Source: a virus
DNA length: 47,456 nucleotides
Strand: one strand, 5' to 3'
Virus record (IMG/VR): IMGVR_UViG_3300039412_000878
Span: 1 to 47,456 of that record
Part shown: in pieces, positions 1,061 to 26,888 of the stretch
Numbering within the stretch: position 1 is the stretch's first letter
Layout: each line of letters opens with the position of its first letter
Made by a program: the position numbers and the translations under genes
The notes under the pieces: generated by a model
The model's input: the letters and a program-made list of their open reading frames with translations, nothing else
The model's database searches: none
Told to the model about the DNA's origin: nothing

Positions 1061-2586
1061 GCGGCGGCTTCGCCGGCCGCGGCCGTGCCCGTGCCGGCGC
1101 CGGCCGGGTCGGCGTATTCGGCCTGCTCGACGTAGGGGTTCCTGGGGAAGGCGCGGCCTTCCTCGGCCGCCTGGTGGGCCTCGGCCTTGGCGGCGTGCAT
1201 CTTGGCGGCGGCCAGGTGCTCCTTGGCCTTGTCGGCGTGTCCTGCGCCCTTGTGGTAGGCGGCCAGGGCCTTGTGGTGCGCCTCGGCCACCTTGTGCGCG
1301 TCGTGCGCCGCCTCGTGGGCGTCGGCGGCCCGGTCGTGCGCCGAGGCGCTTTTGGATCCGGCGGCGTGCTTGCTGGCCTTCTCGGCCGATTTCGTGGCCT
1401 TCTCGGCGGCCTTGCTCGCGCCCTCGGCCGAGTCGAAACGGCCCTTGTCGTCATGGTTGGGGTTGAAACGGGCTTCAATCTGTTCGGTCAACGACATCGC
1501 ATCTCCTTGGTTGGTTCGAGTTTCGAGGCCGAAGGGGACAGTCCCACTTTCGTCGAACGAAAGTTGGGACAGTCCCCGGCCCCGCATCTGCATGGCATCG
1601 GAAAAATTGGCGGCGTACTGGTCGCTGGCGGCCGCGTCGTGCATGGCGGCGGCCTTGGTGTGGAAATCGGCGGCGGCCGTCTTGCCCTCGGTCTTGGCCG
1701 ACTCGGCCGCTTTTTGGTGCGCGGCGGCCGCCTTCAGTTCCAGGGCCCGCGAGGGCAGGCCAGAATTCTCCTTGGCGCGGAGCGTCTCCCGCGTGGCCCG
1801 GTGGGCCTCGGCGGCGTCCGGCCCGTGCTTGGGCTGCTCTTCGTCGCGGCGCTCGGGGTAATTGCCATAGCAGCGGGCCTCCAGATCCGCCAGGTCCAAT
1901 TGCCGCTTCAGGTAATCCACGCTCGGTCGCTTCTCCATGTCTTCGATCTCCCTCTGCTTCTTGGTTTGGGCGGCCGCGTCGGCAGCCGCGCGTTTTTCTG
2001 TTTCCACTTTTTGGGTCGCCGCTTCGGCGGCGGTCCGCTTCTCGATGGCGAGCGCCTCCTCCAGCGAGCGCTTGGCCACGGTCACGTCGGAGGACTTGTA
2101 CGCGGCATCGACGACAATCGAGATGTCGTCCAGGTCCTTGAATTCGCTGATGGTCCGCAGGCGGGAGCCGTCGGGCAGCGTGGTCCAGTCCTGCCGGCCG
2201 CAGATGAAGGCGAAGCTCATGCCCACGCGGTTGCGGCCCACGACCACCGCGGCATCCTTGGCGGCCGTCGTCGGGCCGGCGTGGATCACAAAACCCAGCC
2301 CGCGATCGTCCTCAAAGAGCTTCAGCGTGCCGGTCTCCATGTCGCCCAGCACATTGCGGACCTCCTTGCTGTGGTCGAGGATGGCAAAGAGGTTCCGCGT
2401 CGGTTTGGCCAGCCACTTGGCGGCCGCCCCGCGCTTGATGGTTTCGACGAAGCCGCCCAGGTCGTCGCTGCGGGCGTCCCACTCGAAGACGTAGCCCGAA
2501 AAAACGTCGCCCCCGTCGTCGCCCTTGGCGGCGCGGAGTTCGGCCGGTTTGCGGATGATGCGGATTTCTCGTTCGGCGGTGGTCAT
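1051..2586 (-). CDS. HK97-type prohead protease fused to an Ala-rich scaffold-like tail
   Basis: Residues 1-190 match the prohead protease (U35/S78) fold: GYVFEWDARSDDLG near 30, ILDHSKEVRN near 68 and GRNRVGMSFAF near 118, giving the usual His and Ser positions. It should mature the capsid. The other 320 residues are a long Ala/Lys/His helical region, probably a scaffold, as in lambda C/Nu3 fusions; no separate scaffold gene is seen. A 44-bp palindrome (1534-1577) is read in frame at residues 337-351. Just after it, MSLTEQIEARFNPNHDDKGR could be an internal start for a free scaffold. The FNxNHDxxGxF motif also occurs in the portal protein. The gene overlaps the preceding one as ATGA. Confidence 0.85.
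   Translation of the reverse strand: MTTAEREIRIIRKPAELRAAKGDDGGDVFSGYVFEWDARSDDLGGFVETIKRGAAAKWLAKPTRNLFAILDHSKEVRNVLGDMETGTLKLFEDDRGLGFVIHAGPTTAAKDAAVVVGRNRVGMSFAFICGRQDWTTLPDGSRLRTISEFKDLDDISIVVDAAYKSSDVTVAKRSLEEALAIEKRTAAEAATQKVETEKRAAADAAAQTKKQREIEDMEKRPSVDYLKRQLDLADLEARCYGNYPERRDEEQPKHGPDAAEAHRATRETLRAKENSGLPSRALELKAAAAHQKAAESAKTEGKTAAADFHTKAAAMHDAAASDQYAANFSDAMQMRGRGLSQLSFDESGTVPFGLETRTNQGDAMSLTEQIEARFNPNHDDKGRFDSAEGASKAAEKATKSAEKASKHAAGSKSASAHDRAADAHEAAHDAHKVAEAHHKALAAYHKGAGHADKAKEHLAAAKMHAAKAEAHQAAEEGRAFPRNPYVEQAEYADPAGAGTGTAAAGEAAATA
1534..1577. repeat. Family F 44-bp palindrome, in frame in protease gene
   Basis: GGGGACAGTCCCA and TGGGACAGTCCCC arms face a TTTCGTCGAACGAAA centre. 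It encodes GLSQLSFDESGTVP within the protease-scaffold protein, exactly at the linker between domains. Copies of the same 44-bp length are at 17330-17373 and 26780-26823. Confidence 0.93.
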
Positions 2587-2846
2587 GGCATCGGTTTCCG
2601 TTTGTTGCGCCCCTGCGGGGCTGAGGTTTTATGGCTCTGCGCACCCAGGGCGTTGCCCTGGGCTATCGAGTCAGGCCCCTTTGGGGCGGGGGCGTTTCGC
2701 GTTTTCGTGCTTTCGTGATTCCCTTCCGTGTTCGTTCCGTGTTTCATCCGTGGCTGCTTTTCCTTCCTGCCGAAGGCCCGTTCCCAGTTGCGTTCGAACT
2801 GTTCGCGGCTGACCAGGCAGGGCCGGCGGCGGCTACCTTTTCCCAT
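2583..2846 (-). CDS. Small basic phage protein with repeat-derived C-terminus
   Basis: An 87-residue protein. The first 33 residues (MGKGSRRRPCLVSREQF, then RNWERAFGRK) look like a small conserved protein seen in HK97-type head regions, function unknown to me. From about residue 34 the sequence is translated repeat text (CATCCGTGG unit, then the CCCTGGGCTATCGAG element), so the C-terminus was probably replaced or extended. It starts one base after the MuF-like stop and ends in an ATGA overlap with the protease start, so translation is likely coupled. Confidence 0.6.
   Translation of the reverse strand: MGKGSRRRPCLVSREQFERNWERAFGRKEKQPRMKHGTNTEGNHESTKTRNAPAPKGPDSIAQGNALGAQSHKTSAPQGRNKRKPMP
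2605..2757. repeat. Families H and I repeat text inside a small gene
   Basis: A palindrome-rich stretch with CCCTGCGGGG, CCCAGGGCGTTGCCCTGGG and CCCCTTTGGGG is followed by the CCGTGTTTCATCCGTGGC unit. A second H-type element is at 45220-45300; the CATCCGTGG unit recurs near 25406 and 27630. Confidence 0.7.
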
Positions 2847-2847
2847 A

Positions 2848-3921
2848 TCAGGCTTCTCCCACGATGCCGCAATGGCAGGTGTCGTTCAGGGGCGGATGAT
2901 GGCGGCCTTCGGCAAACGGTTCGTCGATGGCCACGACGCGGCCGTTCAGGGCGCGGCACTCTTCGCCGTCGGCCGGGTTGGCCACCCAACGGAGCGACTT
3001 GCAGCCGGCGGCGCGATAGGCTTCCCGCGTCAAAAAGCCGGCGGCCTGGCGGAGCTGGCGATCGGCGGCGGCGGGGGCCGACTTCTCGCGCAAGAGCATG
3101 GCGGCGTCGATCCGATCGGCGATCAGAGCAGGTGAATTCTGAGCAGGTGAACAGTTGACCGGTTGCTGTCTCACCTGTTCACCTGCTCCATCGCTCACCT
3201 GTTCTTTCTCGCCGGTCATCATGTCGGCCAGGTGCTGCTTGGCCTGGTGCACGTGGCGGCCGGCCAGCGTCTTGGCGTAGGCCCCCACGGCCGCGTCGTC
3301 GCCAAGCTGCATGTCGCCGTCGGCGCGCTCCTCGGCCACGTGGCGGCGGAGGACCACGTTCAGCGTGCTCAGCGGCGGGACGAACGAGTCGCCGATCTGC
3401 TCCCGGTAGGCGTCGTAAAACTCATTGGCGCGCCGCTCGAACTGCTCGGGATGGTTTTCCCGCAGGTGCTTCGTCAGGCCGCGGATGGCCTTCGACTCTT
3501 TGCTGGCGACCCGGGCCGCCACATCGCAGAACACGGGGGCCAGGGCGTCGACCGCCTTTTGGCGCGCGTCAAGGCTGCGCTGCTCGAAGACCGGCTGCTC
3601 GGCCGCGGCCGATCGTTCTTCGTCCGCGGGCTCCTCCGCAGGATCAAAGCCCACGCCGTCGGTGAGGAGCGCGACGTCCTTGCACTTGGCGGCCGCCGCG
3701 GCGATCGCCGCGCGGACCGAATCGGCCGAATCGTCGTCGAAGGAGGCCGCCGCCAGCTCGGCCGCCAGGTCCCCCGGGGCGTCGGACGATCCGGCCGAAA
3801 GCAGCGCGTCGGTTTGCGGCCCGGGCGAATCCGCCGCGGCGGCGGCGCGGAAGTCGGCCAGGCCGCCGCCGCTGGCGACGTCGGCCACATATCCCCGCGA
3901 ATCGTAGATCGAGTAGCCCAT
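2848..3921 (-). CDS. MuF-like minor head (capsid morphogenesis) protein
   Basis: A 357-residue protein with a helical middle (residues 110-235) and a C-terminal MuF-type zinc/Cys motif: CKSLRWVANPADGEECRALN, then VAIDEPF, then HHPPLNDTCHCGI (residues 307-354). MuF proteins join portal to capsid interior and are ejected or help assembly. Position between portal and protease fits. Residues 238-265 are an inserted family D inverted repeat (3126-3207) read in frame as EQVSDGAGEQVRQQPVNCSP and onward, just before the C-terminal domain. The N-terminal 100 residues are acidic, Ala-rich and low complexity. Confidence 0.82.
   Translation of the reverse strand: MGYSIYDSRGYVADVASGGGLADFRAAAAADSPGPQTDALLSAGSSDAPGDLAAELAAASFDDDSADSVRAAIAAAAAKCKDVALLTDGVGFDPAEEPADEERSAAAEQPVFEQRSLDARQKAVDALAPVFCDVAARVASKESKAIRGLTKHLRENHPEQFERRANEFYDAYREQIGDSFVPPLSTLNVVLRRHVAEERADGDMQLGDDAAVGAYAKTLAGRHVHQAKQHLADMMTGEKEQVSDGAGEQVRQQPVNCSPAQNSPALIADRIDAAMLLREKSAPAAADRQLRQAAGFLTREAYRAAGCKSLRWVANPADGEECRALNGRVVAIDEPFAEGRHHPPLNDTCHCGIVGEA
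3126..3207. repeat. Family D inverted repeat, in frame in MuF-like gene
   Basis: AGCAGGTGAA arms on the left face TCACCTGTTCACCTGCTC arms on the right around a GACCGGTTGCTGTC centre. It is translated without stop in the MuF-like gene even though the unit carries TGA in another frame. Other D copies are at 12889-12968, 14327-14428, 23061-23096, 25107-25141, 27708-27741, 28148-28231 and 45591-45712. Confidence 0.85.
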
Positions 3922-3924
3922 CGG

Positions 3925-6207
<2,283 letters not shown>

Positions 6208-6246
6208 TGGAACCCTTTCGGGAGTTGCGGGCTAAAGCCCGCCAGT

Positions 6247-6336
6247 ATTCAGTTTTCAGTTTTCAGTTCGCATGCGAATGGACCGTCGTTTTCCGCGTCA
6301 GCGTACTGAACACTGAAAACTGAACACTGAACACTA
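6247..6336. repeat. Family A inverted pair
   Basis: TTTTCAG units at 6247-6268 face CTGAACA/CTGAAAA units at 6304-6336. The loop begins with the perfect palindrome TTCGCATGCGAA. It fills the TerL-portal spacer and abuts the TerL stop. Confidence 0.85.
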
Positions 6337-8112: not shown

Positions 8113-8126
8113 GTTCTTGGCGGCGG

Positions 8127-8627
8127 TTAATTTCTGCGGAGCGATCCGGCGATGAGCTGGGCAATGAGGTCCGGCTCTTCCTTGGCGTTGCTGATCGACA
8201 GGCCCGCGCGGGCCGAGGGCGTCATGCCGAACTGCACGAGCAGCTTGGTGAGCTTGCCCCAGGCCTTGTTCATCACGCCGACGGCCGGGTGCTGGATGAT
8301 GTTGCCCTTATCGGTGCAGGTGACGTACTTCATTCCCATCTGGTCGGTCCGCGCGGCCTCGTCGACGATCGCGCGGCATTCGCAGTACTCGGCCAGGGCC
8401 TCGCATAGCAGGCCGAGAGCCACCTGGTCGAGTCGCGTCAGCAGGCCCTCGCGAAACAGGTGGGCGGCCAGTTCTTTCCAGTGCGGGGCCGCCGACTTCG
8501 CGGCCCACGAGGGAAACGGCGGGATCTCGGCCGCGGGCTTCGGCTCGTCGCGCTGCCGGCCCGGGCGCAGCGTGCCGGCCCGCGCTTTGAGCGCCGTCGG
8601 CTTCGGTTTCGTTCCCCTTTTCCCCAC
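8127..8627 (-). CDS. terS: Terminase small subunit (P27 family)
   Basis: A 166-residue DNA-recognition subunit. The P27-type N-terminus MGKRGTKPKPTALK and the middle LTRLDQVALGLLCEALAEYC match this family, which binds pac or cos DNA and hands it to TerL. The C-terminus (SISNAKEEPDLIAQLIAGS) has the short acidic tail typical of P27 proteins. The gene precedes TerL by 14 bases and follows an HNH nuclease gene by about 117 bases, the standard HK97 packaging order. Confidence 0.93.
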   Translation of the reverse strand: MGKRGTKPKPTALKARAGTLRPGRQRDEPKPAAEIPPFPSWAAKSAAPHWKELAAHLFREGLLTRLDQVALGLLCEALAEYCECRAIVDEAARTDQMGMKYVTCTDKGNIIQHPAVGVMNKAWGKLTKLLVQFGMTPSARAGLSISNAKEEPDLIAQLIAGSLRRN

Positions 8628-8744
8628 CTCCGACCCCCCCTATCAAAACTTGGCTGCGCGCCAAAGAGCCTTAGACGCGGTTCCGGCGACCAACCAAAAA
8701 AAGGTCCGACCCTGCCCCCCCCATCCAAATAACCGCGCCAATCG

Positions 8745-9110: not shown

Positions 9111-9118
9111 CGTCCGTC

Positions 9119-10429: not shown

Positions 10430-10438
10430 GGTTGCGCC

Positions 10439-10849: not shown

Positions 10850-10853
10850 CGGT

Positions 10854-12386: not shown

Positions 12387-12730
12387 CAACGTGGGGCGGG
12401 GACCGTCGGGCGTGGGGCGGATTGTTCCAGGGCCTCTACGCGATCCCGCAGCCCGCAGCCGGCGGGCGTATGGGCCACGGCCTCGACGTCCGTCAGCCGT
12501 CCGCGCATCCGCCGTTGCTCGCGGCCGATCTTGGCGACCGTCTGGAGCAGTTGCTTGATTTGCTGAAGTTCGTCCAGTACATTGGCGAACCAGGCCCCCG
12601 AGTGCCACGCGGCGCGGAGCAGCTTCCAGGCGGCGACGGCGGCCGCCGGCAGCGCGACCAGCGCGGCGAGCGAGTAGTAAACGGCTTCCCAGTGGATGGA
12701 TTGCCAGGCGTCGTAGATGTGCTCGTTCAT
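12386..12730 (-). CDS. Small membrane protein with coiled coil (holin-like candidate)
   Basis: A 114-residue protein. One membrane segment (residues 19-37, YSLAALVALPAAAVAAWKLL) is followed by a helical ELQQIKQLLQTVAKIG coiled coil. This is the layout of phage holin-like or lysis-accessory proteins, and two peptidase genes lie close upstream. The last ten residues (APRPTVPAPR) are translated family C heptads. The stop overlaps the HNH start. A lysis role is inference. Confidence 0.55.
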   Translation of the reverse strand: MNEHIYDAWQSIHWEAVYYSLAALVALPAAAVAAWKLLRAAWHSGAWFANVLDELQQIKQLLQTVAKIGREQRRMRGRLTDVEAVAHTPAGCGLRDRVEALEQSAPRPTVPAPR

Positions 12731-12735
12731 GGTGC

Positions 12736-12768
12736 CTAATCCCTAATCCCCAATCCCCAATCCCTGCC
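12736..12768. repeat. Family B single arm (TAATCCC)
   Basis: Units of TAATCCC and CAATCCC lie just upstream of the membrane-protein start. They are followed by a family D element at 12889-12968, together filling the 234-base spacer to the next gene. Confidence 0.8.
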
Positions 12769-12888
12769 AAGAGACTCGCCGGCGGGCGGACGGAGAAGAG
12801 CGGCTGCAGCTCACCATACGGTGCCATCGCGAGACGCGCCCTCGTGCTCCCCGAATCCGCCGGCGAGCGGGTCAGAACAGGAGAACAG

Positions 12889-14615: not shown

Positions 14616-15068
<453 letters not shown>

Positions 15069-17154: not shown

Positions 17155-18093
17155 ATGATCGAGTCGATCGAGTCGATCCACAATATCCTGTTCCGGCATG
17201 GTTTTCCGGTCGCCGCGCCCACCGATCCACAGCCTCCACTCCCACCCGGTCCGGCCGTCATGCCCGGCCCCACTGTGCCGACCGCGGCCGCAGGCGCCAC
17301 AACTGCCGCCGCGGCGGCGCGGGAGTGCCGGGGACTGTCCCAAGTTTCGTTCAACGAAACTGGGACTGTCCCCCTTGCCGCCGCAGCCGGCGCGACCGAC
17401 ACCCCGCCGGCTGCCGCCGTGATTCGCGAGGCGGTCGTGGACCGTGGGGCGTCTTCACGCCCCACGCCCCACGCCCCACGCCCCACTGTCCCCCAGTCCC
17501 GCGCCACGCTGGCCGAGGCCCTGGCCAAAACCCGCGAGCCGCGGCAACTGACGATCGAGGAGGTCCTCGGCGAGTGGACCAAGTACGATTGCCAGGCCAC
17601 CCGCCGCGCGTTGCGGCTGGGCTGCCTGGCCTGGCAGTGGGTCTCACAGCAGCCCGATCGGCCGGCGGCCGTCCAGCAACTCAGAAAGGCCCTGGCCGAC
17701 CTGGGCATCACCGGCGAGGCAGCGCGGGTCAATCGCGTAATCGCCTGTTATTGGGTCGCGCGACTCTTGGGGGCCGATACCGTGGAGCTCCTGCCGCTTT
17801 CCACGGTTCGCGCGCTTTGCCCGCTCGTGAAGCGCGATCCGGTGACGGAGCAATGGGACGTCCGCCCGGGTCTCGGCGATCTGGCCAGGGGGCTGATGCG
17901 GCAAATCCTCGAGCGGCATCTGACTGCCAAGGCGATCGCCGATCAGGTGACCGCCTTGCGCCCCAGGAAAGACAAGCCTGTACAACCGCGGCTAGTGCGT
18001 CTGGATCGCGTCATCAGCCGGCTGCCCATCGAAGAGCAGCGCGAGCTTGAGGCAAGGCTCCATGCTCGGCTGGCGTCGTCAGCCGCGGCATAA
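17155..18093 (+). CDS. Plus-strand protein of unknown function with two in-frame repeats
   Basis: A 312-residue protein; GGAGGCGGCC precedes its ATG. Residues 1-130 are Pro/Ala-rich and hold two repeat translations: the 44-bp palindrome (residues 59-73, GLSQVSFNETGTVP) and family C heptads (residues 95-115, DRGASSRPTPHAPRPT). Residues 130-312 look like a real helical domain, starting TLAEALAKTREPRQLTIEEV, with WTKYDCQATRRALRLGCLAW and a basic C-terminus. I do not recognise it; a DNA-binding role is possible. It is the only plus-strand gene between 1 and 28.9 kb and has its own hairpin leader, so it is probably separately regulated. Confidence 0.65.
   Translation: MIESIESIHNILFRHGFPVAAPTDPQPPLPPGPAVMPGPTVPTAAAGATTAAAAARECRGLSQVSFNETGTVPLAAAAGATDTPPAAAVIREAVVDRGASSRPTPHAPRPTVPQSRATLAEALAKTREPRQLTIEEVLGEWTKYDCQATRRALRLGCLAWQWVSQQPDRPAAVQQLRKALADLGITGEAARVNRVIACYWVARLLGADTVELLPLSTVRALCPLVKRDPVTEQWDVRPGLGDLARGLMRQILERHLTAKAIADQVTALRPRKDKPVQPRLVRLDRVISRLPIEEQRELEARLHARLASSAAA
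17330..17373. repeat. Family F 44-bp palindrome, in frame in the 17155 gene
   Basis: GGGGACTGTCCCAAGTTTCG and its inverted partner meet at TTCAACGAA. It is read as GLSQVSFNETGTVP, the same frame as the copy in the protease gene although the genes are unrelated and on opposite strands. Confidence 0.93.
17437..17497. repeat. Family C heptads, in frame in the 17155 gene
   Basis: CGTGGACCGTGGGGCG faces CCCCACG units. The stretch is translated without a stop, 64 bases after the 44-bp palindrome in the same gene. Confidence 0.85.
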
Positions 18094-18433
18094 CCGTCGC
18101 CATGTGACGGCAAACTCTTCGCGATCGGTGCGCGATAGCAAAAAAAGGGCGCGCACGTCTTTTTTGAAGTTGCTAATCGATACAACCCGACCGCGCCAGA
18201 AGGCCCAAAATCGCGTAGCGATTGCCCGATGGTCGGCCCCGGAATCGCGTAGCGATGGCCCGATGGTAGCCGTGGGTTTCAACCCACGGTCTCCAGCCCG
18301 CGTGCGATGATGCGTCGCGTAGCGACGCCTGACCGTCAATCGTCGCTACGCGGCCGGAATGCGGCATGGGATGCGCCCGTTCCGTGGGTTGAAACCCACG
18401 GCTACCATCAGCGGCCGCTACGCGGCCAATGCG
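18094..18433. repeat. Convergent spacer filled by family E elements
   Basis: This 340-base spacer separates a plus-strand gene from the 3' end of an integrase on the minus strand. It holds GCGCACGTC-rich text to 18190, then a family E pair (18207-18430) with the usual CCGTGGGTTTCAACCCACGG palindromes. Long inverted arms at a convergent junction could serve as a two-way terminator; no T-tract is seen. Confidence 0.7.
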
Positions 18434-19663
18434 TCACGCCATCACGATCCGCCTAAATTCCCGGTACAGCCGCCGGGGATGCTCGTCGCCGGCCGCGATG
18501 CGCTCCGGCCACGCGAACCGCCGTCCCTTGGCCCGCATGGTGATCGCCGGCCAATGCCAGTCGCGCATGATGTCCGGCAGTAACCGCAGCACGTCCAGGT
18601 AATACTTGGGCACGACGCCGATCCCGTGGCCGAGCTGCGTCGCCTCGGCCGTGGGATTGATATTGAAGAGCCGGGTGCAGCAGTATTGCCGCATGGCCTG
18701 GTGCGGGCGCTTTTCCCGCAACCCGGATTCGCGGACCAAGTCCAGCCAGGCCGAGCGCGAGAACGGCCAGCCGATCAACCGCTCCGCGAAAAGCCGCCTG
18801 CCGGCAAGCAAATCGCGTTCGTCGGCGGCCGGCTCGTGCAAGGCCCGGACCAGGCCTAGTGCCGCCGGGCATAGATAGACGATCCGCGGGCGGTTGGTCT
18901 TGCTCTGCCGCACGAGCAGCCAGTTTCCTTCCACGTCGCCGGCCCGGGCCCGCAACAGTTCGCCCAGGCGCAGCCCGACCAGCACCACGATCGCCTGGGC
19001 CAGGACTACGCGACGGCGCAGGCCGGCGGCCACGGTCGACCGGCTGCTCCACAGCACGGTCGTCCACCATTGGCCGATCTGGTGCCGGTCCGGGACCGCG
19101 GCCGGCGGCAACGCCAGGTTAGGCGCGATTTTTTGGGGGATCTCGCAATCCAGCCCCAGCAGCTTGAATACGGGCATGCAGCCCCGCAACTGGTGCCCAA
19201 TCGTGTGCGGCTCGCGTTTGCCCCCCTTGCGCCGCGTCTGCGGCGTCGAGGGCGTCTCCAGGAAGCGGGCCACCTCCGCCGGCGCGAAGCCCCCGGGCAG
19301 CGTCCCCGGCTGCCACGGCGCCGCCGCAGTACTGCGCAGCCAGGCCGTGAATCGCGTCGGCAGGTTTTTGGGTAGCGCCTCGATGGCCGGGTCCGCACCG
19401 AGATGCTCGAAGAGCAGCCAGAGCGCGCTGCGGTAATCGCTGATGGTCCGCGGCGACCGACCCAGTTCCGCCAGCCGGGCCAAGAACTGGGTCACAACCT
19501 CCGACAGCCGACGGCCCGCCTGGCTTTGTGCGCAGTTGGGCGCTGAAATTATATTGGTACTGTCCGGCGCCGCCGGCCCGGCCAGTGCCGCGCCCGATTC
19601 GCGTGATTCGTGTGGTTCGTGGTGATCTGTCTCTTCCTCTCGCTTCCAAAATGCGATCCGCAT
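18434..19663 (-). CDS. int: Tyrosine recombinase / integrase 1
   Basis: A 409-residue tyrosine recombinase. The core-binding domain is near residues 50-110 (RSPRTISDYRSALWLLFEHL). Catalytic residues are R232 (GLRLGELL), K255 (RQSKTNRPR), H321 and R325 (HQAMRQ), H346 (QLGHG) and Y354 or Y355 (KYYLDV). The second Arg sits in HxxxR rather than HxxR. It is paralogous to the integrase at 25533-26888 over its whole length. Residues 10-25 (EETDHHEPHESRESG) look like translated GATTCGTGTGGTTCGTGGT repeat text. GGGGAA precedes the ATG. A hairpin lies 57 bases upstream. Confidence 0.9.
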   Translation of the reverse strand: MRIAFWKREEETDHHEPHESRESGAALAGPAAPDSTNIISAPNCAQSQAGRRLSEVVTQFLARLAELGRSPRTISDYRSALWLLFEHLGADPAIEALPKNLPTRFTAWLRSTAAAPWQPGTLPGGFAPAEVARFLETPSTPQTRRKGGKREPHTIGHQLRGCMPVFKLLGLDCEIPQKIAPNLALPPAAVPDRHQIGQWWTTVLWSSRSTVAAGLRRRVVLAQAIVVLVGLRLGELLRARAGDVEGNWLLVRQSKTNRPRIVYLCPAALGLVRALHEPAADERDLLAGRRLFAERLIGWPFSRSAWLDLVRESGLREKRPHQAMRQYCCTRLFNINPTAEATQLGHGIGVVPKYYLDVLRLLPDIMRDWHWPAITMRAKGRRFAWPERIAAGDEHPRRLYREFRRIVMA

Positions 19664-19719
19664 GATGATTTTCCCCGTGATAGAGCCCCAGGGAATTATG
19701 CGCTGGAAAAGGCCCCGCT

Positions 19720-19746
19720 GAGAACCGGACTATCAATCCGGTTCTC
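19720..19746. promoter_or_regulatory. Stem-loop upstream of integrase 1
   Basis: GAGAACCGGA pairs perfectly with TCCGGTTCTC around CTATCAA. A related stem-loop with loop CTATATA lies upstream of integrase 2 (26994-27022). The CGGA-7-base-TCCG core resembles a tRNA anticodon arm. Confidence 0.55.
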
Positions 19747-19768
19747 GGCAGGCCCGCTTTCGGCCCGA

Positions 19769-19962
19769 AATCGCGTAGCGATGGCCCGCCGGTAGCCGTG
19801 GGCTTCAACCCACGGTGGACGCGCCGCGCGCGATGATGCGTCGCGTAGCGACGCCTGATGTCCGGCCGTCGCGACGCGACGGAATGCGGCGCCGGGGCGC
19901 GTCGCGCCCGGCCCGTGGGATTCAAACCCACGGCTACCATCAACGGCCGCTACGCGGCCAGA
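19769..19962. repeat. Family E pair between integrase 1 and the 19940 gene
   Basis: Left unit AATCGCGTAGCGATGGCCCG with CCGTGGGCTTCAACCCACGG; right unit ends GGCCGCTACGCGGCC. Interior GTCGCGACGCGAC-type palindromes are present. The right end reads as the last codons and stop of the neighbouring small gene. Confidence 0.85.
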
Positions 19963-20182
19963 CCGCCTGGCCTACGGCGAACTCCCGGCCGAAAAGGATT
20001 TCCTCGCGGTGCTCCTCGGCCAGCGCCATGAGCGCCTCCCATGCCTCGCGAAAATTCATCGCTCCCTCAGTCGTCGCGTGATGTGGCATGTAGCGCGCCA
20101 GCCGCCGGCCGACGGTGCCGCCATGCTCCCTGCATGGCGAGAGCAGCCAGCGCAGCGCAGCTTCCTGGTGGATGGTCAGCAT
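19940..20182 (-). CDS. Small protein coupled to the ParB-like gene
   Basis: An 80-residue protein (MLTIHQEAALRWLLSPCREH start, then AMNFREAWEALMALAEEHRE). It is helical and acidic in the middle, without membrane spans. The ATG overlaps the ParB-like stop as ATGCTGA, so translation is coupled. The last residues (VWPRSGR) and the stop are encoded by a family E element. Function is unknown to me. Confidence 0.55.
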   Translation of the reverse strand: MLTIHQEAALRWLLSPCREHGGTVGRRLARYMPHHATTEGAMNFREAWEALMALAEEHREEILFGREFAVGQAVWPRSGR

Positions 20183-22197
20183 CGGCGATCGCCTTTCTTG
20201 CCCAGGGCCAGCCCCGGCGGCGGCGGGAGCGATCGGGCTGAGAGCCAGCTTATGAGGGCCGACTTCTTCGTATCGGGGCTCACACAGAGCCCCCTGGTCT
20301 GCGCGATGGCCGCCAGTTCGCTCTTCTCGTGCGCGCCCCACCAGGCGGCCGTGAGCGGCCCGAGCTGGTCCGCCTTCCAGGCGGCCACCGGATCCAGGCC
20401 CAAAATCCGCGCGACCCTTTGGACCTGGCCGGAGTTCTCCCACACGATTTCCGCCGGCCGGCCATCGTGCGAGTTCCAAAAGCACTCGGCCAGCAGGCGC
20501 TGCGCCCGTTCGCGGACGGAAGCGCCCTTGAGCCTCGTGAGCGCTTTATCGACGTCGCGGGCCTTGTAGCCTTCGGCCCAGCCCTTGAGGGCCGCAATCG
20601 AAAGCAGTTCGATCAGTTCCTCGTCCGTCGTGGCCGGGTCCAGCACGCGGCCCGCGACCAGGTGCTTGAGCCGCTGCACCAGCAGCGACTTGCGGCGGCG
20701 GGCGAGCTGCTCGCGGGTCTTGGCCTTGCGGGCCTTTTCATCCGCGGCCGCCTGCTTCTGCTCCGCGGCGGTGAGCGGCCGGCCATTGCCCGGGGCGCCG
20801 CCGGCCTTGCCGGCGCCGTCCTGCCGCTGCTTGCGGCGGGCGATCAGGGCGGCGCGGTGCGCCTCCTGCAGCTCGTCCCAGAGCTTCACGTTGCAGGCCC
20901 GCTCCTCGGTCTTCTTGCTGCCGCGGCCGGCGGGGAACTCGCGGATGTCGAGCTTCTGCCGCTGCTCTTCCGTCGGCGCGAAAATGGGGCACGCTCTGCC
21001 GATTTCGGTGATGTACACCGTCCCGCCCATGGGCCGCGTGCCATCGTCGATGTAGTCATTGATGCCGCCCTCTTCCAGGCTCAGGACGTCGGCGACGGTG
21101 CTGCCCGGATGCCATTTTTTCATGTCCTTGTGGCGATCGAGGATCTCCTCGACCACCGCCGGCATGTCGGCCACGCGCACCAGGTCGCGGGCCTGGAAGG
21201 CCGATATTTCGCCCGAAATGACCGCCTCCTGGAACGGCTTCGGCAGCCGCAACAATCGCAGGCGGTTGCTGATGTGGCCCTGGCTGAGCCCCAGCCTGGC
21301 CGCCAGAGCCTCCTGGGTCGGCGCGCCGGGCCGGCTGAGGATCGCGCGGAAGCCGCGGGCCTCCTCGATGGCCGAGAGGTCCTTCCGCAGCAGGTTCTCG
21401 ATCACCACGATCTCCTCGGCCTGGCCGTCGTCGGCCTCCACGATGCGGGCCCGGATGGCGGTCCAGCCGGCCAGCCTGGCGGCGGCGCAGCGGCGGTGCC
21501 CGGCCAGCAGTTCGTAGCGGCCGCGGCTCGGGTCGCCGATCGGCCGCACGACCACCGCCTGCAGCAGGCCGTGGCTCAGGAGCGTGTCGCGCAGGCCCTG
21601 CAGGTCCTCGTCCGGCTCCGCGTCGCCGGCCTCGCGGAGCTGGTAGGGGCTGTCGGCGATCGCCGCCAGCGGGATCTCGCGCTCGGGCGCAGCGTGCGTG
21701 CCACCGGCTTCGCCGGCGGCCTCCAGCAGTCCGGCCGCCGCGGCCCGAGCCGCCTTCGCGTCGGGCGCGCGGGCGGAGAAAGTTTTGGTTTCGCGATCCG
21801 GAGTTTCCGATCTGAGATCCTCCCGCAAGTACTGCTGGACGTACTGGATCGCCAGCGCGGCCTGCGCGGCGGTGAGGGCTTCGTCCGCGCCGATCGCCGC
21901 GACCGCCTGGGCGCAGAACGCGCCGACGTGCGACGGCACCGGCATGTCGTAGATCCTCGTGAGCTTCTCGGCCAGGGCCGTCCGCATGGCCTTGGCCATC
22001 GACGGCCACGCCGCGCCGCTGAGCGTGCCGTCCGCGTCCGGGTCCGCCAGCGCGCCGCCCAGCGTCTGCGTTCCCGTGCCGACGGCTCGCGGCGCGCCTT
22101 TCGTCGCCCCACGATCCACGGTCCCCGCTCCACGCTTCACGCCGCCCACCTCAGCCGCCGGCAACGGTCGTTTCCGAAACACCGATCGTGATTTCAT
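20176..22197 (-). CDS. ParB/RepB-like protein (nuclease-like N-domain plus HTH)
   Basis: A 673-residue protein. The ParB/Srx core is clear: EIPLAAIADSPYQLRE (174-189), LLAGHRRCAAARLAGW (230-245), VIENLLRKDLSAIEEARGF (265-283) and an HTH, PTQEALAARLGLSQGHISNR (293-312). The C-terminal 350 residues are helical with a basic KARKAKTREQLARRRKS stretch. ParB proteins bind parS sites and partition DNA; some phage ones regulate or nick. The length is twice usual. No ParA is seen. Residues 5-32 are almost identical to the start of the 22571 gene, so ATG 22197 is preferred over 22209. It sits in the replication module, consistent with segregation or ori work. Confidence 0.85.
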   Translation of the reverse strand: MKSRSVFRKRPLPAAEVGGVKRGAGTVDRGATKGAPRAVGTGTQTLGGALADPDADGTLSGAAWPSMAKAMRTALAEKLTRIYDMPVPSHVGAFCAQAVAAIGADEALTAAQAALAIQYVQQYLREDLRSETPDRETKTFSARAPDAKAARAAAAGLLEAAGEAGGTHAAPEREIPLAAIADSPYQLREAGDAEPDEDLQGLRDTLLSHGLLQAVVVRPIGDPSRGRYELLAGHRRCAAARLAGWTAIRARIVEADDGQAEEIVVIENLLRKDLSAIEEARGFRAILSRPGAPTQEALAARLGLSQGHISNRLRLLRLPKPFQEAVISGEISAFQARDLVRVADMPAVVEEILDRHKDMKKWHPGSTVADVLSLEEGGINDYIDDGTRPMGGTVYITEIGRACPIFAPTEEQRQKLDIREFPAGRGSKKTEERACNVKLWDELQEAHRAALIARRKQRQDGAGKAGGAPGNGRPLTAAEQKQAAADEKARKAKTREQLARRRKSLLVQRLKHLVAGRVLDPATTDEELIELLSIAALKGWAEGYKARDVDKALTRLKGASVRERAQRLLAECFWNSHDGRPAEIVWENSGQVQRVARILGLDPVAAWKADQLGPLTAAWWGAHEKSELAAIAQTRGLCVSPDTKKSALISWLSARSLPPPPGLALGKKGDRRC
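22103..22197. repeat. Shared N-terminal coding segment, copy 1 (direct repeat)
   Basis: About 90 bases at the start of the ParB-like gene match the start of the 22571 gene (22888-22981). Both encode VFRKRPLPAAEVGGVKRGAG then TVDRGAT. The second half is family C text (CCCCACGATCCACG); the first half is unique sequence. Confidence 0.85.
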
Positions 22198-22336
22198 GGT
22201 TCTTGGCATCCTTCTTGAAAAGTAAACGCACTTCACGCAGGCCGCGCTCCAGCGGCGGCCATTTCACGCGCCGATCCAAATCAGCCGGCGGACATGGCAG
22301 GTAGTCTCCCCGGTGAACCTCGAACGGCTCAGCCAT
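22151..22336 (-). CDS. Small protein between ParB-like and helical genes, unknown
   Basis: A 61-residue protein, MAEPFEVHRGDYLPCPPADL start, then a basic WPPLERGLREVRLLFKKDAK core. GGAG lies 7 bases before ATG 22336, which is better than ATG 22342. It overlaps the previous gene by 8 bases and runs 47 bases into the ParB-like gene. The end was perhaps lengthened when the shared segment was duplicated. No family is recognised. Confidence 0.5.
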   Translation of the reverse strand: MAEPFEVHRGDYLPCPPADLDRRVKWPPLERGLREVRLLFKKDAKNHEITIGVSETTVAGG

Positions 22337-22574
22337 CGCCATGCTCCGCGGCCACCGCCAGGCACTTGTCCACCACGAGTTTCTGGTAGAGAAAACACGT
22401 CAGTGCTTGGAGATCCTCCAGCGAGAGCTCCTCGCACACGACCAGGTGCAATTCGCCCGCATGTTCGTCATGCCCCACGCCCATCAGCAGCGCCGGCGTG
22501 GAGTGGTTTTCGATAAGCCGCTGTTTCCAGGACTCCAGCCGCTCGGCACAGATCGTTTCCACCGGCACGCTCAT
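22329..22574 (-). CDS. Small conserved-looking protein in replication module
   Basis: An 81-residue protein (MSVPVETICAERLESWKQRL start; HLVVCEELSLEDLQALTCFL near 48-67). It is an alpha/beta acidic cytoplasmic protein. GTGAGGACG precedes the ATG. It begins in an ATGA overlap with the preceding stop and overlaps the next start, so the genes 22981 to 19940 form a tightly coupled set. Function is unknown to me. Confidence 0.6.
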   Translation of the reverse strand: MSVPVETICAERLESWKQRLIENHSTPALLMGVGHDEHAGELHLVVCEELSLEDLQALTCFLYQKLVVDKCLAVAAEHGDG

Positions 22575-22981
22575 GTTTGCGTCCTCACCTTTTGGCGCTC
22601 GATCCGGGCCGCGCACGCGCTGCCGCCTTGGTCCTCGGCCACGGCTACCGTTTCAGATTTTGCCCCTTTCGTTTCAGATTTTGCCCCTTTCGTTTCACGT
22701 TTGGGCGGTGTCGTCTCACTGCCGGCTACCGGCCTGCCATCGATATAGGCCGACTGCACGACATCCCATCGCTTGTGCAATGCCCAGCGGGCCAGGTCCT
22801 GCTCGGCCGCCGCCTGCGATTTGCGCATGGGCAATGTCTTGGCTTTCAGTCGGGCCAGGCCGCCCGACGGCCGGCGGCGGCGTGCGGTCGCCCCACGATC
22901 CACGGTCCCCGCTCCACGCTTCACGCCGCCCACCTCGGCCGCCGGCAGCGGCCGCTTGCGAAATACGCCTCCCCTTTTCAT
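22571..22981 (-). CDS. Protein sharing the ParB-like N-terminus, unknown function
   Basis: A 136-residue protein with a strong AAGGAGG site. Residues 3-31 nearly match the ParB-like protein. The middle (AAAEQDLARWALHKRWDVVQ, then SAYIDGRPVAG) looks like a real small helical domain. Residues 95-113 are a tandem ETKGAKSETKGAKSET repeat, made from a 24-base DNA repeat at 22655-22702. The tail is Arg-rich. It probably works with the ParB-like protein, perhaps through the shared N-terminal segment; this is inference. Confidence 0.55.
   Translation of the reverse strand: MKRGGVFRKRPLPAAEVGGVKRGAGTVDRGATARRRRPSGGLARLKAKTLPMRKSQAAAEQDLARWALHKRWDVVQSAYIDGRPVAGSETTPPKRETKGAKSETKGAKSETVAVAEDQGGSACAARIERQKVRTQT
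22655..22702. repeat. Tandem 24-base repeat in the 22571 gene
   Basis: Two and a partial copies of TTTCAGATTTTGCCCCTTTC give KGAKSET repeats in the protein. Being a multiple of three, copy-number change would keep the frame. Confidence 0.8.
22888..22981. repeat. Shared N-terminal coding segment, copy 2
   Basis: Matches 22103-22197 in the same orientation with a few substitutions (TCGGCCGCCGGCAGCGGCCG against the copy 1 variant). It carries the ATG and the Shine-Dalgarno-proximal part of the 22571 gene. Confidence 0.85.
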
Positions 22982-23006
22982 GACTTTTGGCCTCCTTCAT
23001 TGTCCG

Positions 23007-23096
23007 TGGGTTGAAACCCACGGCTATCATCAACGGCCGCTACGCGGCCCCATTGCGTTTCACCTGTTCACCTGCTCAAAAATCACCTGCTCTGTC
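23007..23096. repeat. Family E single unit followed by family D arm
   Basis: CCGTGGGTTGAAACCCACGG and GGCCGCTACGCGGCC are followed by CACCTGTTCACCTGCTC. They lie in the 231-base spacer upstream of the 22571 gene; the rest of that spacer is GC-rich with CCCCGCCCC runs. Confidence 0.8.
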
Positions 23097-23212
23097 CCCG
23101 CCCCGCCCCCCGTCCCCGCGCCGCCAGGGTATGCGGCGCGGAGACGGCTTCGATCCGCGGGGCGTCGGCCGGCGGAGCTACGAGCCCGCCGGCCTGCGTC
23201 GACCTTGCTTAG

Positions 23213-24547
23213 CTACGGCGGCCTGGCCGCGGCGGTCCGCCGCAGGTGGTCGCGCTGTTCTTTGATCGCCCGCTTGAGCTCCGCGATTTCCTCCGGCGTG
23301 TCCGGCCGCTCGGCCGGCGGCGGAGATGGCGGCGCTGGAGAGGCCGGCGGCGGATAGTGCCGCTCGGCGTGCAGTTCCAGCGGCGTCATCACCTGCGCGA
23401 AAGCGCTCTTCCACTCGGCCCTGCCGGCGATCGCCTCCATGCCGCCGCGCTCGCAGGTGGCCTCCATCAGCACGGCCTGCAACAGGCCCAAAGGCTTCCG
23501 CACGTCGCCCCCGCGCATCTGCGCGCCGACCTTTCGCGCCGACTCGATCAGCCACGCGCGATCGAAGAGCAGCAAGGCCGCGAGGGCATCGGCGGTGAGC
23601 GTGCGGTGGACCTGCGGATCGGTGAGCCGCATGTGGACGATTGTGGCCGCCTCGGCGGCCAGATTCCGCACTTCTGTGCGCCGGGCTCTCCGGATCTGAT
23701 CTCTGTCGACGACGACGTCTTCAGACTCTTCAGACTGAAGACCGTGCGCGGCCGCGCGCACGCGCGTCCACGATCTCCAGGCATGCGCCACGTGGAGCAG
23801 GTCGTTTTGTGCGCCAGTATCCCCCTTGCGGATGGAAAGGTTGCACGTGGGTGCGCCAGGCTGGCGCACGTGTGCGCCAGGGTGGCGCACAGGTGCGCCA
23901 ATGTCCCCTCGTTCGGGTAAATTTTGTGCGCCAGGGTCCGGCGGCTGTGCGCCAAGGTCTCCACCTTCGGGTGGCATCGAAAACGACTGCTCTTCGGCGG
24001 CCCCAAACGGCCCGTTATACTGGTCCGCGCGGGCCGAGTCGCGCCCGCTTTGACCGGCCAAATGACGAGGGCCGGCCACGGCCGGCCGGCCCTCGTCCTC
24101 GGCTACCATCTGCCCCGCGCTGGGAAGCTGATGCACGGCCGCGCCAGCTTGACCCGCGACTGCGAGAACGGCCTCCCAGACCAGTCGTGCGCAGCGAGGC
24201 AGGCGTCTCCCATTCCTATCGTACCGCGGCTCCAAAATCAAGATGCCGAGGTCGGCCCAGAACTTGATCGCGCTCTGGACCGCACGCTGCCCCAGGCGGA
24301 CCGAGGCCGAGTCGCCGATGGCGGCCGCGTCGACCTCCACCGGCACCGACATGGCGTCCGCCGCGTGCAGCCACAGCAGCACCGAGAGGTGGGCCTTTCG
24401 CGCCTCGGTGGTCAGCAGCAGGCGATTGAGCACTTCCACGCGCTCGCAGAATTTGATGGCGGCGTAACGCCTGACCGCCGCCTCGTCGGCCTCCGAGCCC
24501 CGCCAGATGTGTTCCAGTGGGCCCGGGTCGATTTGTTTCTTCGCCAT
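23213..24547 (-). CDS. Replication initiator-like protein carrying internal iterons
   Basis: A 444-residue protein. Residues 30-115 look like a winged-helix replisome-organiser N-domain: VEVLNRLLLTTEARKAHLSV, DAAAIGDSASVRLGQRAVQS and IKFWADLGILILEPRYDRNG. Residues 195-250 are a repetitive linker with GAQ, GAP and GAH repeats encoded by TGCGCCA iterons. Residues 270-400 form a helical C-domain with TADALAALLLFDRAWLIESA, followed by a Pro-rich tail. AAGGAACGC precedes the ATG. As in lambda O, an origin may lie inside the gene. The initiator assignment is inference from the domain pattern plus iterons; no catalytic motif is seen. Confidence 0.68.
   Translation of the reverse strand: MAKKQIDPGPLEHIWRGSEADEAAVRRYAAIKFCERVEVLNRLLLTTEARKAHLSVLLWLHAADAMSVPVEVDAAAIGDSASVRLGQRAVQSAIKFWADLGILILEPRYDRNGRRLPRCARLVWEAVLAVAGQAGAAVHQLPSAGQMVAEDEGRPAVAGPRHLAGQSGRDSARADQYNGPFGAAEEQSFSMPPEGGDLGAQPPDPGAQNLPERGDIGAPVRHPGAHVRQPGAPTCNLSIRKGDTGAQNDLLHVAHAWRSWTRVRAAAHGLQSEESEDVVVDRDQIRRARRTEVRNLAAEAATIVHMRLTDPQVHRTLTADALAALLLFDRAWLIESARKVGAQMRGGDVRKPLGLLQAVLMEATCERGGMEAIAGRAEWKSAFAQVMTPLELHAERHYPPPASPAPPSPPPAERPDTPEEIAELKRAIKEQRDHLRRTAAARPP
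23784..23954. other. Candidate replication origin: nine TGCGCCA iterons
   Basis: Heptamer TGCGCCA begins at 23784, 23810, 23852, 23873, 23894, 23927 and 23948; reversed copies TGGCGCA begin at 23862 and 23883. Two pairs form 17-base palindromes. The spacings 42, 21, 21, 33 and 21 are close to whole helical turns. They are inside the initiator-like gene. A modest AT-rich patch (GGTAAATTTT) lies between copies at 23916-23925. Confidence 0.7.
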
Positions 24548-24762
24548 GATGCGTTCCTTGCTCCCTGGCTCCTGACTCCTGACTCCTAACTTCCCTCTTC
24601 TGCCGCCACGCGGCGCCGGCCCGCTCCGGCCCGGCCTATGTCCCGCAGCCCTCGCGACGGCCGACGCCGCTATTGCATAGTGTTCAGTTTTCAGTGTTCA
24701 GTTTTCAATTGTGCATTTCCGGCTCTTGCTGAACACTGAATCACTGAACACTTCAAACTGCT
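24548..24762. repeat. Spacer with CTGACTCCT repeats and family A pair
   Basis: The spacer holds short CTGACTCCTGACTCCT repeats near 24570 and a family A inverted pair (24680-24707 against 24729-24757). The pair's loop has GCATTTCCGGCTCTTGCTG, related to loops at 12010 and 38735. No gene is seen. Confidence 0.8.
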
Positions 24763-25110
24763 TCAGACCATCCTTTCCGTTTCCGCGTCCCAGCGCATCC
24801 AGCCGTTATCGGGCAGCCACTCCTTTTCGCCGCCTTCCTTGTCCGCGTGGCGGCGGGGAAAGAGGGTCCCGCCCTCCTTATGCACGCCCAGTTGCAGCAC
24901 GGCCCGGCAGCGCGAACAGACCAGCTCAAAAAACTCGTTGCCTTGCGAATTCTTCCGCGCGCGAAAGATTAGCTCGCTGGATTTGCATTTTCCGCACCGC
25001 ACTTCGCCGAAGACCTCCTGCGCGCTGGCCAGCAGCCGGAACAGGTCCTTCTGCTGATCGGCCTCCAATTCCACCATCAGGTTCGCCCGGACCCTAAGTT
25101 GTGCCTTCAC
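24763..25110 (-). CDS. Zinc-ribbon protein in the replication module
   Basis: A 115-residue protein with a helical start (VELEADQQKDLFRLLASAQE) and a zinc ribbon: C39-x2-C42 and C65-x2-C68 (VRCGKC, VCSRC). RARKNSQGNEFFELVCSRC suggests a protein that recognises nucleic acid. It uses GTG as start. The GAGGAGGTGAACAG sequence serving as its ribosome site is a family D repeat arm (25107-25141). It precedes the initiator gene, suggesting a replication or recombination accessory role; function is otherwise unknown. Confidence 0.65.
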   Translation of the reverse strand: MKAQLRVRANLMVELEADQQKDLFRLLASAQEVFGEVRCGKCKSSELIFRARKNSQGNEFFELVCSRCRAVLQLGVHKEGGTLFPRRHADKEGGEKEWLPDNGWMRWDAETERMV

Positions 25111-25141
25111 CTGTTCACCTCCTCACCTGTTCGCCTGTTCT
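25107..25141. repeat. Family D arm acting as ribosome binding site
   Basis: CACCTGTTCACCTCCTCACC on the plus strand reads GGTGAGGAGGTGAACAGGTG on the minus strand. It provides GAGGAGG and the GTG start codon of the zinc-ribbon gene. Confidence 0.7.
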
Positions 25142-25532
25142 CGCCAGCCAAGCCCATCGAGCAGCGCAGAGGGCGGACACACTCCAAGCGGCCCGCCTGC
25201 TTCCAGGACCCAGGCCAGGTTCTCTCTGCGCTGCCCGGCGGGTTCGGCGGGAAAAATCGTGGAGCGTGGGGCGTCATGCGTGGACCGTGAAAACGCTCCA
25301 CGCCCCACGGTCCCCGCCCCGCGCGCTTTCGCCCCACGCCCCACGAAAGGGCCACGGACGGACACGGCTGGCATTGCCCCGCGGAAAGGAGACCATCCGC
25401 AAGACGTCCGTGTTTCATCCGTGGCCGAATTCTGCCTGAATCGGGGGGCGCGAGGCGTGGCGCGCGGCGCGTGAAAACGCCCCACGCCCCACGGTCCCCG
25501 CCCCGCGCTTTCCCCCTCGCGTTCAAAATCCG
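25111..25532. repeat. Repeat-dense spacer upstream of the zinc-ribbon gene
   Basis: These 422 bases hold a family D arm (to 25141), 110 bases of unique sequence, family C arrays at 25258-25347 and 25440-25513, and a CATCCGTGG unit near 25420. On the minus strand 25123-25250 is open (LAWVLEAGGPLGVCPPSALL) and may be the remnant of a lost gene's end. The family C arrays face each other and could form a long hairpin. Confidence 0.65.
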
Positions 25533-26888
25533 TCACTCGGCCCCGGCCCGCGCGGCCAGCCGCGCCCGCCGCCGCCCGCGGCGATCGCCGCCGGAGCCCA
25601 CGATCCGCCGCCACTGCTCGTAGAGCCGTTCCGGGCGCGAGCAGTCGGCCGCGATCGCCGCCGGCCAGATCCAAAGTTGCGGCGGCAGGTCCGGCAGGAG
25701 GAAGCGGTCCAGCACCGCCGGAATCCGCATCAGCACGTCCATGTAAAACTTTTCGATCACCCCGCCGCCATGCCCCAGTTGCGCCGACTCGATCGCGCGG
25801 AGCTGCGCGGCGATGCCGTCGATGCCCGGCGGCACGGCGCCTGGCGAGAGCATCCAGTTCGAGCAGGCTCTTCGCAGGGCCTGGTGCGGCTTCTTCTGAG
25901 GCAGCCCCAGCCCGCGCGTGATGGCGCACCAATAACACTCGCTGTACGCCCAGCCGCAGACCCGATCCAAGGGCCCCGGCTCGGGATCGCAAAACAACTC
26001 CAGTTGCCCCGAGTCGGGCCGCCGCAATGCGGCCGCGATCCCCAGGGCCTGCGGGTTCTGGTAGATGATTCTGGGGGCGTTGGTTTTCGATTCGCGGATC
26101 AAGAGCCATGCCCCCTGGCAATCGACCAGGCGGGCCGCCAGCAGTTCGCCCAGCCGCATGCCGGTCAAGAGGCAGTAGGCTTGCGTCAGCACGGCCCGGC
26201 GGCGCAGCGCCCGGCCGATCGGCCGCAGACGCGGGCCGTCGCCGCCGGGTCGGCCGGCGACGACCATCGCCAGGCCCGGGGCCGTGAGCGCGTGGACCCA
26301 CCAGCCCAAGACGTCCTCGAGCTCCGGCGCGATCGGCGGGGGGAGGGCCAGGCAGGGCTTTTCGTCGGACGGGATCTCGCAGTCCAGCCCCACGCCCTGG
26401 CTCTGCAGCCAGCGGAAGAACGGCAAGACCTGCCGCATCACGTGCCCCAGCGTGTGCTCCTCGCGCAGCCCCTTCTCGGGCATGGTCTCCGGGGCCGACT
26501 TCGGATCGCAAAACCGTGTGATGGCCGGCGTGGAAAATTCGGCGGGCAGCGTGTGCGGCTTGTGGTTCGCGATCCGTTGCTCTGACAGCCAGGCCAGGAA
26601 GTTCACCGGATCGTCGCGCCTCAGCTCGCGTACCGGAAAGTCGCCGCCGGCGTAGCGGACGTAGGCCCACAGGGCATGGCGGTAATCGTCCATGGTCCGC
26701 GGCTTGTTGCCGCGCCGCCGCTGCCGCTCCAAGAAGCAGTTGATGGCGTCGCTCAGCCGCGCATCGGGCCAAAGTTCGCGGGGACTGTCCCAAGTTTCGT
26801 TCGACGAAACTGGGACTGTCCCCTTTGCCCTCTCCGACTCTCGACTCCAAATCCTCCGTGCCGATTGCTCCTGATCGTGCATGTTCAT
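25533..26888 (-). CDS. int: Tyrosine recombinase / integrase 2
   Basis: A 451-residue tyrosine recombinase paralogous to integrase 1. Catalytic residues are R245 (GMRLGELL), K268 (RESKTNAPR), H335 and R339 (PHQALRR), H373 (QLGHGGG) and Y382 (FYMDVL). The core-binding domain is near residues 45-100. Residues 22-37 are the translated 44-bp palindrome, in a different frame from the other copies (KGTVPVSSNETWDSPR). ACGAGG lies before ATG 26888. Of the two integrases it is closer to attP (1.8 kb), so it is my candidate for integration at tRNA-Lys. A basic tail (RRGRRRARLAARAG) ends the protein. Confidence 0.9.
   Translation of the reverse strand: MNMHDQEQSARRIWSRESERAKGTVPVSSNETWDSPRELWPDARLSDAINCFLERQRRRGNKPRTMDDYRHALWAYVRYAGGDFPVRELRRDDPVNFLAWLSEQRIANHKPHTLPAEFSTPAITRFCDPKSAPETMPEKGLREEHTLGHVMRQVLPFFRWLQSQGVGLDCEIPSDEKPCLALPPPIAPELEDVLGWWVHALTAPGLAMVVAGRPGGDGPRLRPIGRALRRRAVLTQAYCLLTGMRLGELLAARLVDCQGAWLLIRESKTNAPRIIYQNPQALGIAAALRRPDSGQLELFCDPEPGPLDRVCGWAYSECYWCAITRGLGLPQKKPHQALRRACSNWMLSPGAVPPGIDGIAAQLRAIESAQLGHGGGVIEKFYMDVLMRIPAVLDRFLLPDLPPQLWIWPAAIAADCSRPERLYEQWRRIVGSGGDRRGRRRARLAARAGAE
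26780..26823. repeat. Family F 44-bp palindrome, in frame in integrase 2
   Basis: GGGGACTGTCCCAAGTTTCG and inverted partner around TTCGACGAA. It is read as GTVPVSSNETWDSP in the linker before the core-binding domain, showing that a second frame of the element is also open and tolerated. Confidence 0.93.

What the first reader, a model, noticed from the sequence alone, without database searches (positions are those of the whole stretch)
1534..26823. A 44-bp palindrome is inserted in frame in three unrelated phage genes
Copies at 1534-1577, 17330-17373 and 26780-26823 are all exactly 44 bp. They lie in a protease-scaffold gene, an unknown plus-strand gene and an integrase. Each sits at a domain linker and is translated: GLSQ(V/L)SF(N/D)E(T/S)GTVP in two genes and, in a second frame, GTVPVSSNETWDSP in the third. 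Rickettsia palindromic elements are the known parallel. I know of no description in a phage of this kind. It suggests a mobile element selected to be open in several frames.
Basis: partly seen in the sequence, partly recalled or inferred. Interest (0 to 1): 0.85.

Follow-up and report, generated by a model that had tools for sequence, protein, structure and literature searches.

The report
Host mobile palindrome inside phage genes
A 44-letter palindrome that is scattered through the genomes of planctomycete bacteria, and that those bacteria tolerate in frame inside their own proteins, has also landed three times in the genes of this phage, where it adds a stretch of about 15 amino acids each time.

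Summary
In detail: three 44-bp palindromes (93-98% alike) at the stated coordinates, each in an open frame: a real prohead protease, a weakly supported plus-strand ORF and an integrase. It is no coincidence (12 foot motifs; 0.5 expected). The element is a host repeat. It occurs in Planctomycetota MAGs (84 copies in one, most of them carried by a 107-bp composite palindrome). There it lies in frame inside host proteins: DinG, a spore-photoproduct-lyase-like protein, a kinase. Orthologues with a near-empty site lack 14-15 residues at that point. As single strand it folds into a hairpin with a conserved mismatch and bulge. Its foot, GGGGACAG, fits the GGGGWSAS motif of terminal repeats of RAYT-type tyrosine transposases; two RAYT genes elsewhere in the phylum are flanked on both sides by pairs of GGGGACTGTCCCC. 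Best reading: a REP/TIR-type palindrome mobilised in trans by a host RAYT-like transposase, inserted in the phage and kept where the frame survives. The exact cognate transposase was not found. It works like Rickettsia palindromic elements but is not one of them. Related palindromes sit in other viral contigs, one in frame in a Mu-like transposase. I found no report of this in phages. Selection for open frames is not shown.

The parts
1534..1577 (-). 44-bp palindromic element, copy A, in frame in the prohead protease/scaffold gene; peptide RGLSQLSFDESGTVPF
   Evidence: the same insertion in the separate contig IMGVR_UViG_3300038420_000169
1051..2586 (-). prohead protease (Peptidase_S78) with C-terminal extension; carrier of copy A
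   Evidence: PF04586 E=3.9e-25, phrog_80 head maturation protease; coding score 0.65 before and 0.62 after the element
17330..17373 (+). 44-bp palindromic element, copy B; peptide RGLSQVSFNETGTVPL
17155..18093 (+). ORF of unknown function carrying copy B; weak coding signal, also holds CACGCCCC heptad repeats
   Evidence: no Pfam or PHROG match; coding score 0.15 before and 0.30 after, best of six frames
26780..26823 (+). 44-bp palindromic element, copy C, read on its other strand by the integrase; peptide KGTVPVSSNETWDSPR
25533..26951 (-). tyrosine integrase carrying copy C near its N terminus; the paralogue at 18434-19663 lacks it
   Evidence: phrog_1 integrase; 39% identity to the paralogue, alignment starts just after the element

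Best explanation
The 44-bp palindrome is a non-autonomous, REP/TIR-type mobile element of a planctomycete (Pirellulales-related) host. Its single strand folds into a hairpin with a constant foot (GGGGAC-mismatch-GTCCC), a bulge and a covarying upper stem. Such hairpins are substrates of RAYT-type (HUH, IS200/IS605-related) tyrosine transposases. A host RAYT acting in trans is inferred to have moved copies into the phage genome while its DNA was single-stranded during replication, without target duplication. Copies are seen only where the gene survives: in frame, at loops, linkers and termini. Shown here: identity with the host repeat, high copy number, in-frame residence in host proteins with near-empty orthologues, hairpin with compensatory changes, association of the foot motif with RAYT genes in the phylum. 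Inferred: that a RAYT moved these very copies, the strand and timing of insertion, and that the peptides are neutral.
For: Host repeat: 72 stretches in GTDB genomes, all Planctomycetota; 84, 8, 2 and 1 copies in four MAGs. In frame in host proteins: DinG-like helicase (E. coli DinG has three residues in that loop; 2 of 19 relatives whose loop could be read carry the element), SPL-like radical-SAM protein (G001, G002, G003 carry it; G405 and G428 have the same flanks without it, net 42 bp), Ser/Thr kinase, RHS-like and others. Hairpin z -6.4 to -8.3, with T-A, A-T, G-C and C-G at one stem pair. RAYT link: two genes matching NF047646 REP_Tyr_transpos above cut-off, flanked on both sides by pairs of GGGGACTGTCCCC; 28 of 36 RAYT terminal repeats examined contain GGG[AT]C and 10 contain GGGGWSAS, which the element also contains (consensus from PMC3733652). 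Other shared host repeats in the phage.
Against: No RAYT is in the window, and none of the RAYT loci examined in G001-G004 is flanked by this palindrome, so the cognate transposase is unknown. No GTAG tag. No phage homologue with an exact empty site exists in the collections. Exact insertion length is unresolved: 44 is not a multiple of three, and the SPL comparison gives a net 42 bp.
Confidence: 0.74

Rival explanations
1. The copies reached the phage by homologous or illegitimate recombination with host DNA that already held the palindrome, not by transposition.
For: The phage also carries other host-like repeats (heptads, CCGTGGGTTGAAACCCACGG, CACTGCTGG...CCAGCAGTG) that have no transposase known to me.
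Against: Comparison with 1.27 Mb of planctomycete DNA finds only the element and a few bases around it at the three sites, with no shared host flank; flanks differ in every copy. Only part of the host genomes was compared.
Confidence: 0.15
2. The element is a functional part recruited by the phage, such as a binding site, transcript terminator, regulator or useful peptide.
For: Foot constant and stem kept by compensatory change; in another phage a copy lies just upstream of a probable ribosome-binding site (L419/L420).
Against: Copies are in different frames and strands, in unrelated genes, and near-identical copies are scattered through host genomes, mostly inside a larger repeat. The constancy of the foot is partly imposed by the search pattern.
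Confidence: 0.08
3. The peptides were selected for: an element shaped to be translatable in all frames so that it can spread through coding DNA.
For: All six frames are open in two phage copies and in the main host form; host genes use several of them.
Against: One copy has a stop in one frame. A GC-rich 44-mer palindrome is often open by chance (rough estimate, not computed), and only survivors are seen. No excess of coding over non-coding copies was tested.
Confidence: 0.12
4. Assembly or binning artefact.
For: Metagenomic contigs only.
Against: Copy A is in a separate contig; host copies lie in many contigs of several MAGs.
Confidence: 0.02

Closest known systems
TIR repeats of TIRtrons / TIRYT (RAYT subclass 2.1), di Nocera et al. 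2013, PMC3733652; discussed in PMC6006769
   Same: Foot fits GGGGWSAS; RAYTs in the same bacterial group have terminal repeats of this style (GGG[AT]C in 28 of 36); small repeat families without a gene
   Different: Here a self-complementary 44-mer with both arms joined, in frame in genes and in phages; no cognate transposase found for this exact sequence
REP / REPIN sequences mobilised by TnpA_REP (RAYT)
   Same: Short imperfect hairpin with a mismatch and bulge; intragenic in-frame copies are known (PMC3733652, PMC6006769)
   Different: No GTAG tag beside the foot; no RAYT next to the phage-type palindrome
Rickettsia palindromic elements (RPE)
   Same: Palindrome inserted in frame in many unrelated proteins
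   Different: 44 bp against about 150 bp (PMC10969869); no CGTC tag (PMC3733652); different phylum; read in several frames here
Bacterial MITEs
   Same: Two joined terminal inverted repeats without coding capacity of their own
   Different: Shorter than the usual 70-300 bp (PMC3733652); no target duplication seen

Membership tests
REP of RAYT (GTAG type) | short imperfect palindrome forming a hairpin with mismatch or bulge | tested here: met
   z -6.4 to -8.3
REP of RAYT (GTAG type) | GT[AG]G tetranucleotide 5' to the foot | tested here: not met
   flanks of 15 independent copies: only Y-T after the GTCCCC end (A-R before GGGGACAG on the other strand) is constant
REP of RAYT (GTAG type) | cognate RAYT gene flanked by the repeat | tested here: inconclusive
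   true for the related double motif GGGGACTGTCCCC in L178 and L182; not found for the 44-mer itself in the RAYT loci examined
TIR repeats of TIRYT transposases | GGGGWSAS motif at the repeat end | tested here: met
   GGGGACAG at the foot (consensus from PMC3733652)
TIR repeats of TIRYT transposases | repeat identical to the terminal repeat of a tyrosine transposase gene | tested here: inconclusive
   similar style, not identical, among 36 terminal repeats
Rickettsia palindromic elements | in-frame presence in many unrelated proteins | tested here: met
Rickettsia palindromic elements | CGTC tag at one end (PMC3733652) and about 150 bp length (PMC10969869) | tested here: not met
IS200/IS605 insertion sequence | own Y1 transposase gene | tested here: not met
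   48 RAYT/Y1 proteins give no tblastn match in the window
any REP-like element | mobilised as single strand by the transposase | not testable with these tools
   needs a biochemical assay

The most novel reading that the evidence does not exclude
Host RAYT-type palindromes are a general source of in-frame peptide insertions in the hallmark genes of planctomycete and other phages (protease, MuA-like transposase, ParB-like, integrase), and phages carry these palindromes between host lineages, acting as their vector.
Probability: 0.25. Interest if true: 0.7.

Novelty: new member of a known kind. Interest (0 to 1): 0.52.

Why it matters
In-frame palindromic insertions were known from Rickettsia and from REP-rich bacteria. 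Here the same thing happens in Planctomycetota and in viruses, in genes a phage cannot do without. It gives a simple DNA tag linking an uncultivated phage to its host group, and it offers natural experiments in how proteins tolerate a fixed insert of about 15 residues: DinG, a radical-SAM enzyme, a kinase activation loop, a prohead protease.

Tried and rejected
Search for phage relatives to show an empty site: only one near-identical contig for the protease, none for the plus-strand ORF or the integrase; a 44%-identity terminase relative (L222) matches the protease only in its N-terminal part and its capsid gene follows closely, so the region of the insertion is not comparable. Search for an empty version of the 107-bp composite palindrome in G001-G004: none. 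Search for a RAYT beside the 44-mer in G001-G004 and in about 80 fetched RAYT loci: none; only the doubled motif GGGGACTGTCCCC is RAYT-flanking (L178, L182). A PDB comparison for the MuA-like protein of L410 gave no match. Chance was rejected. The idea that copy A marks a pure linker is left open: an AAGGAG motif and an ATG follow the element (..AACCAAGGAGATGCGATGTCG..), so the downstream part may also start on its own, and the element may have joined two ORFs.

Full report
Check of the observation. Copies B (17330) and C (26780) lie in one orientation, copy A (1534) in the other. The foot motif is found 12 times, all in these copies, against 0.53 by chance, and the hairpin fit exceeds shuffles. 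Each copy lies in an open frame and gives the stated peptide. The prohead protease is certain, the integrase probable (phrog_1), and the plus-strand ORF weak (no family; coding score 0.15-0.30 against 0.60 for the terminase). The window is a viral record with a 127-bp terminal repeat.

What the element is. In IMG/VR the strict 44-bp pattern occurs in one other contig, a near-identical phage with copy A at the same place. In one genome for each of 84,980 prokaryote species, the somewhat looser 42-bp pattern occurs only in Planctomycetota MAGs: with up to three mismatches, 84 copies in DBS1-3.bin21 (G001), 8 in CSMAG_2480 (G002), 2 in CSMAG_2418 (G003), 1 in the Pirellulales MAG CSMAG_2646 (G004). 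In G001 about 67 of 77 inspected copies sit inside a larger palindrome of about 107 bp, CTAAGCGGCCGTCC...GGACGGCCGCTTAG, so much of the copy number there comes from that composite. In a sample of 392 genomes of the phylum, 9 hold the general plan GGGACTGTCCC-stem-GGGACTGTCCC, often with other stems.

Structure. As single-stranded DNA all forms fold into one hairpin: six pairs, a mismatch, five to six pairs, a bulge, seven pairs and a three-base loop. The foot is constant (partly because the pattern demands it); the pair at 15:31 is T-A, A-T, G-C or C-G in different copies, so the stem is kept through compensatory change. After the GTCCCC end every one of 15 independent copies has a pyrimidine and then T, while no such constant pair of bases is seen on the other side: the element seems tagged at one end.

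In-frame life in the host. Several host copies lie well inside long ORFs. In a DinG-like helicase the element fills the loop after the Walker A region. E. coli DinG (6fwr) has three residues there. 95 of 101 genomes of the family have a match to the gene; of 19 relatives whose loop could be read, only G003 and G002 carry the element, and the loop varies in length in the others. In a spore-photoproduct-lyase-like protein, G001, G002 and G003 carry it at the same point, while about ten other loci lack it; two of these (L377, L387) have conserved flanks and a net difference of 42 bp. In a PknA-like kinase the element is part of a 104-residue insert in the activation loop. Host proteins use several of its frames.

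Link to RAYT transposases. Y1/RAYT genes are common in these genomes. Two of them, L178 and L182, match NCBIfam REP_Tyr_transpos above its cut-off and are flanked on both sides by pairs of GGGGACTGTCCCC. Of 36 recognisable terminal repeats of RAYT/Y1 genes, 28 contain GGG[AT]C and 10 contain GGGGWSAS, the motif di Nocera and colleagues describe for TIR-flanked RAYT relatives (PMC3733652; also PMC6006769). The element's foot, GGGGACAG, fits this motif. I did not find a RAYT flanked by the exact 44-mer, and no RAYT is in the phage. Mobilisation in trans by a RAYT is therefore an inference. For the E. coli enzyme, hairpin bulge and tag are known to matter (PMC8266576).

The phage and its host. 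The window shares further repeats with these planctomycete genomes, for example CCGTGGGTTGAAACCCACGG and CACTGCTGG-type palindromes. This supports a host in or near this group, without proving it.

Other phages. A looser pattern finds 21 stretches in IMG/VR. In L410 a related palindrome lies in frame in a MuA-like transposase followed by a MuB-like gene. In L403 it lies in frame in a ParB-like protein. L419 and L420 (L419 has a portal gene) carry the host-type element with one base changed, upstream of a probable start codon, outside the gene proper. So the phenomenon is not confined to this phage, and not every copy is in frame.

Comparison with what is known. It works like Rickettsia palindromic elements and like intragenic REPs, but is not filed as either: it has no CGTC and no GTAG tag. 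It is closest to TIR-type repeats of RAYT relatives. No paper found in the searched library describes such elements in phage genes; that library is partial. The verdict is a new member of a known kind, with an unusual home.

Noticed in passing
window 1-47456, e.g. 816-847, 12730-12773, 25255-25508, 27025-27118, 32521-32611, 37870-37977, 44235-44401: The phage genome is littered with host-like intergenic repeats: heptads (GGGATTA, CAGTTTT, CGTGGGG), CACCTGTTC repeats and CCGTGGGTTGAAACCCACGG, also inside the ORF 17155-18093.
   Followed up: partly
window 4969-5102 and 14694-14827: A 134-bp inverted duplication at 98% identity: a piece of the portal gene (MGYLHTATGGPWMSKEEAREEDGLPQEVLGTIYPPPNMTGP) repeated about 10 kb away in opposite orientation.
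   Followed up: no
window 18434-19663 and 25533-26951: Two paralogous tyrosine integrases (39% identity) together with a ParB-like gene (20176-22236): possibly a phage-plasmid or a phage with a resolution system.
   Followed up: partly
window 1480-1578: Right after copy A an AAGGAG motif precedes an ATG (ATGTCGTTGACC): the C-terminal part of the protease ORF may have its own start, so the element may have fused two ORFs.
   Followed up: partly
L068 (Planctomycetota MAG DBS1-3.bin21), 1-1509 minus: A PknA-like kinase with a 104-residue insert in its activation loop, built in part from palindrome-derived peptides.
   Followed up: partly
L232 and L366: At the same DinG and SPL loops where some species hold the 44-mer, other species hold other G-rich or heptad-like repeats: such loops collect repeats of several kinds.
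   Followed up: no
L029 (G001), around 360-460: Two copies of the element lie close together in tandem, with further element-like peptide upstream, in one 1176-residue open frame.
   Followed up: no
L178 and L182: RAYT genes bounded by inverted pairs of GGGGACTGTCCCC: a compact REPtron-like unit in Planctomycetota worth a study of its own.
   Followed up: partly
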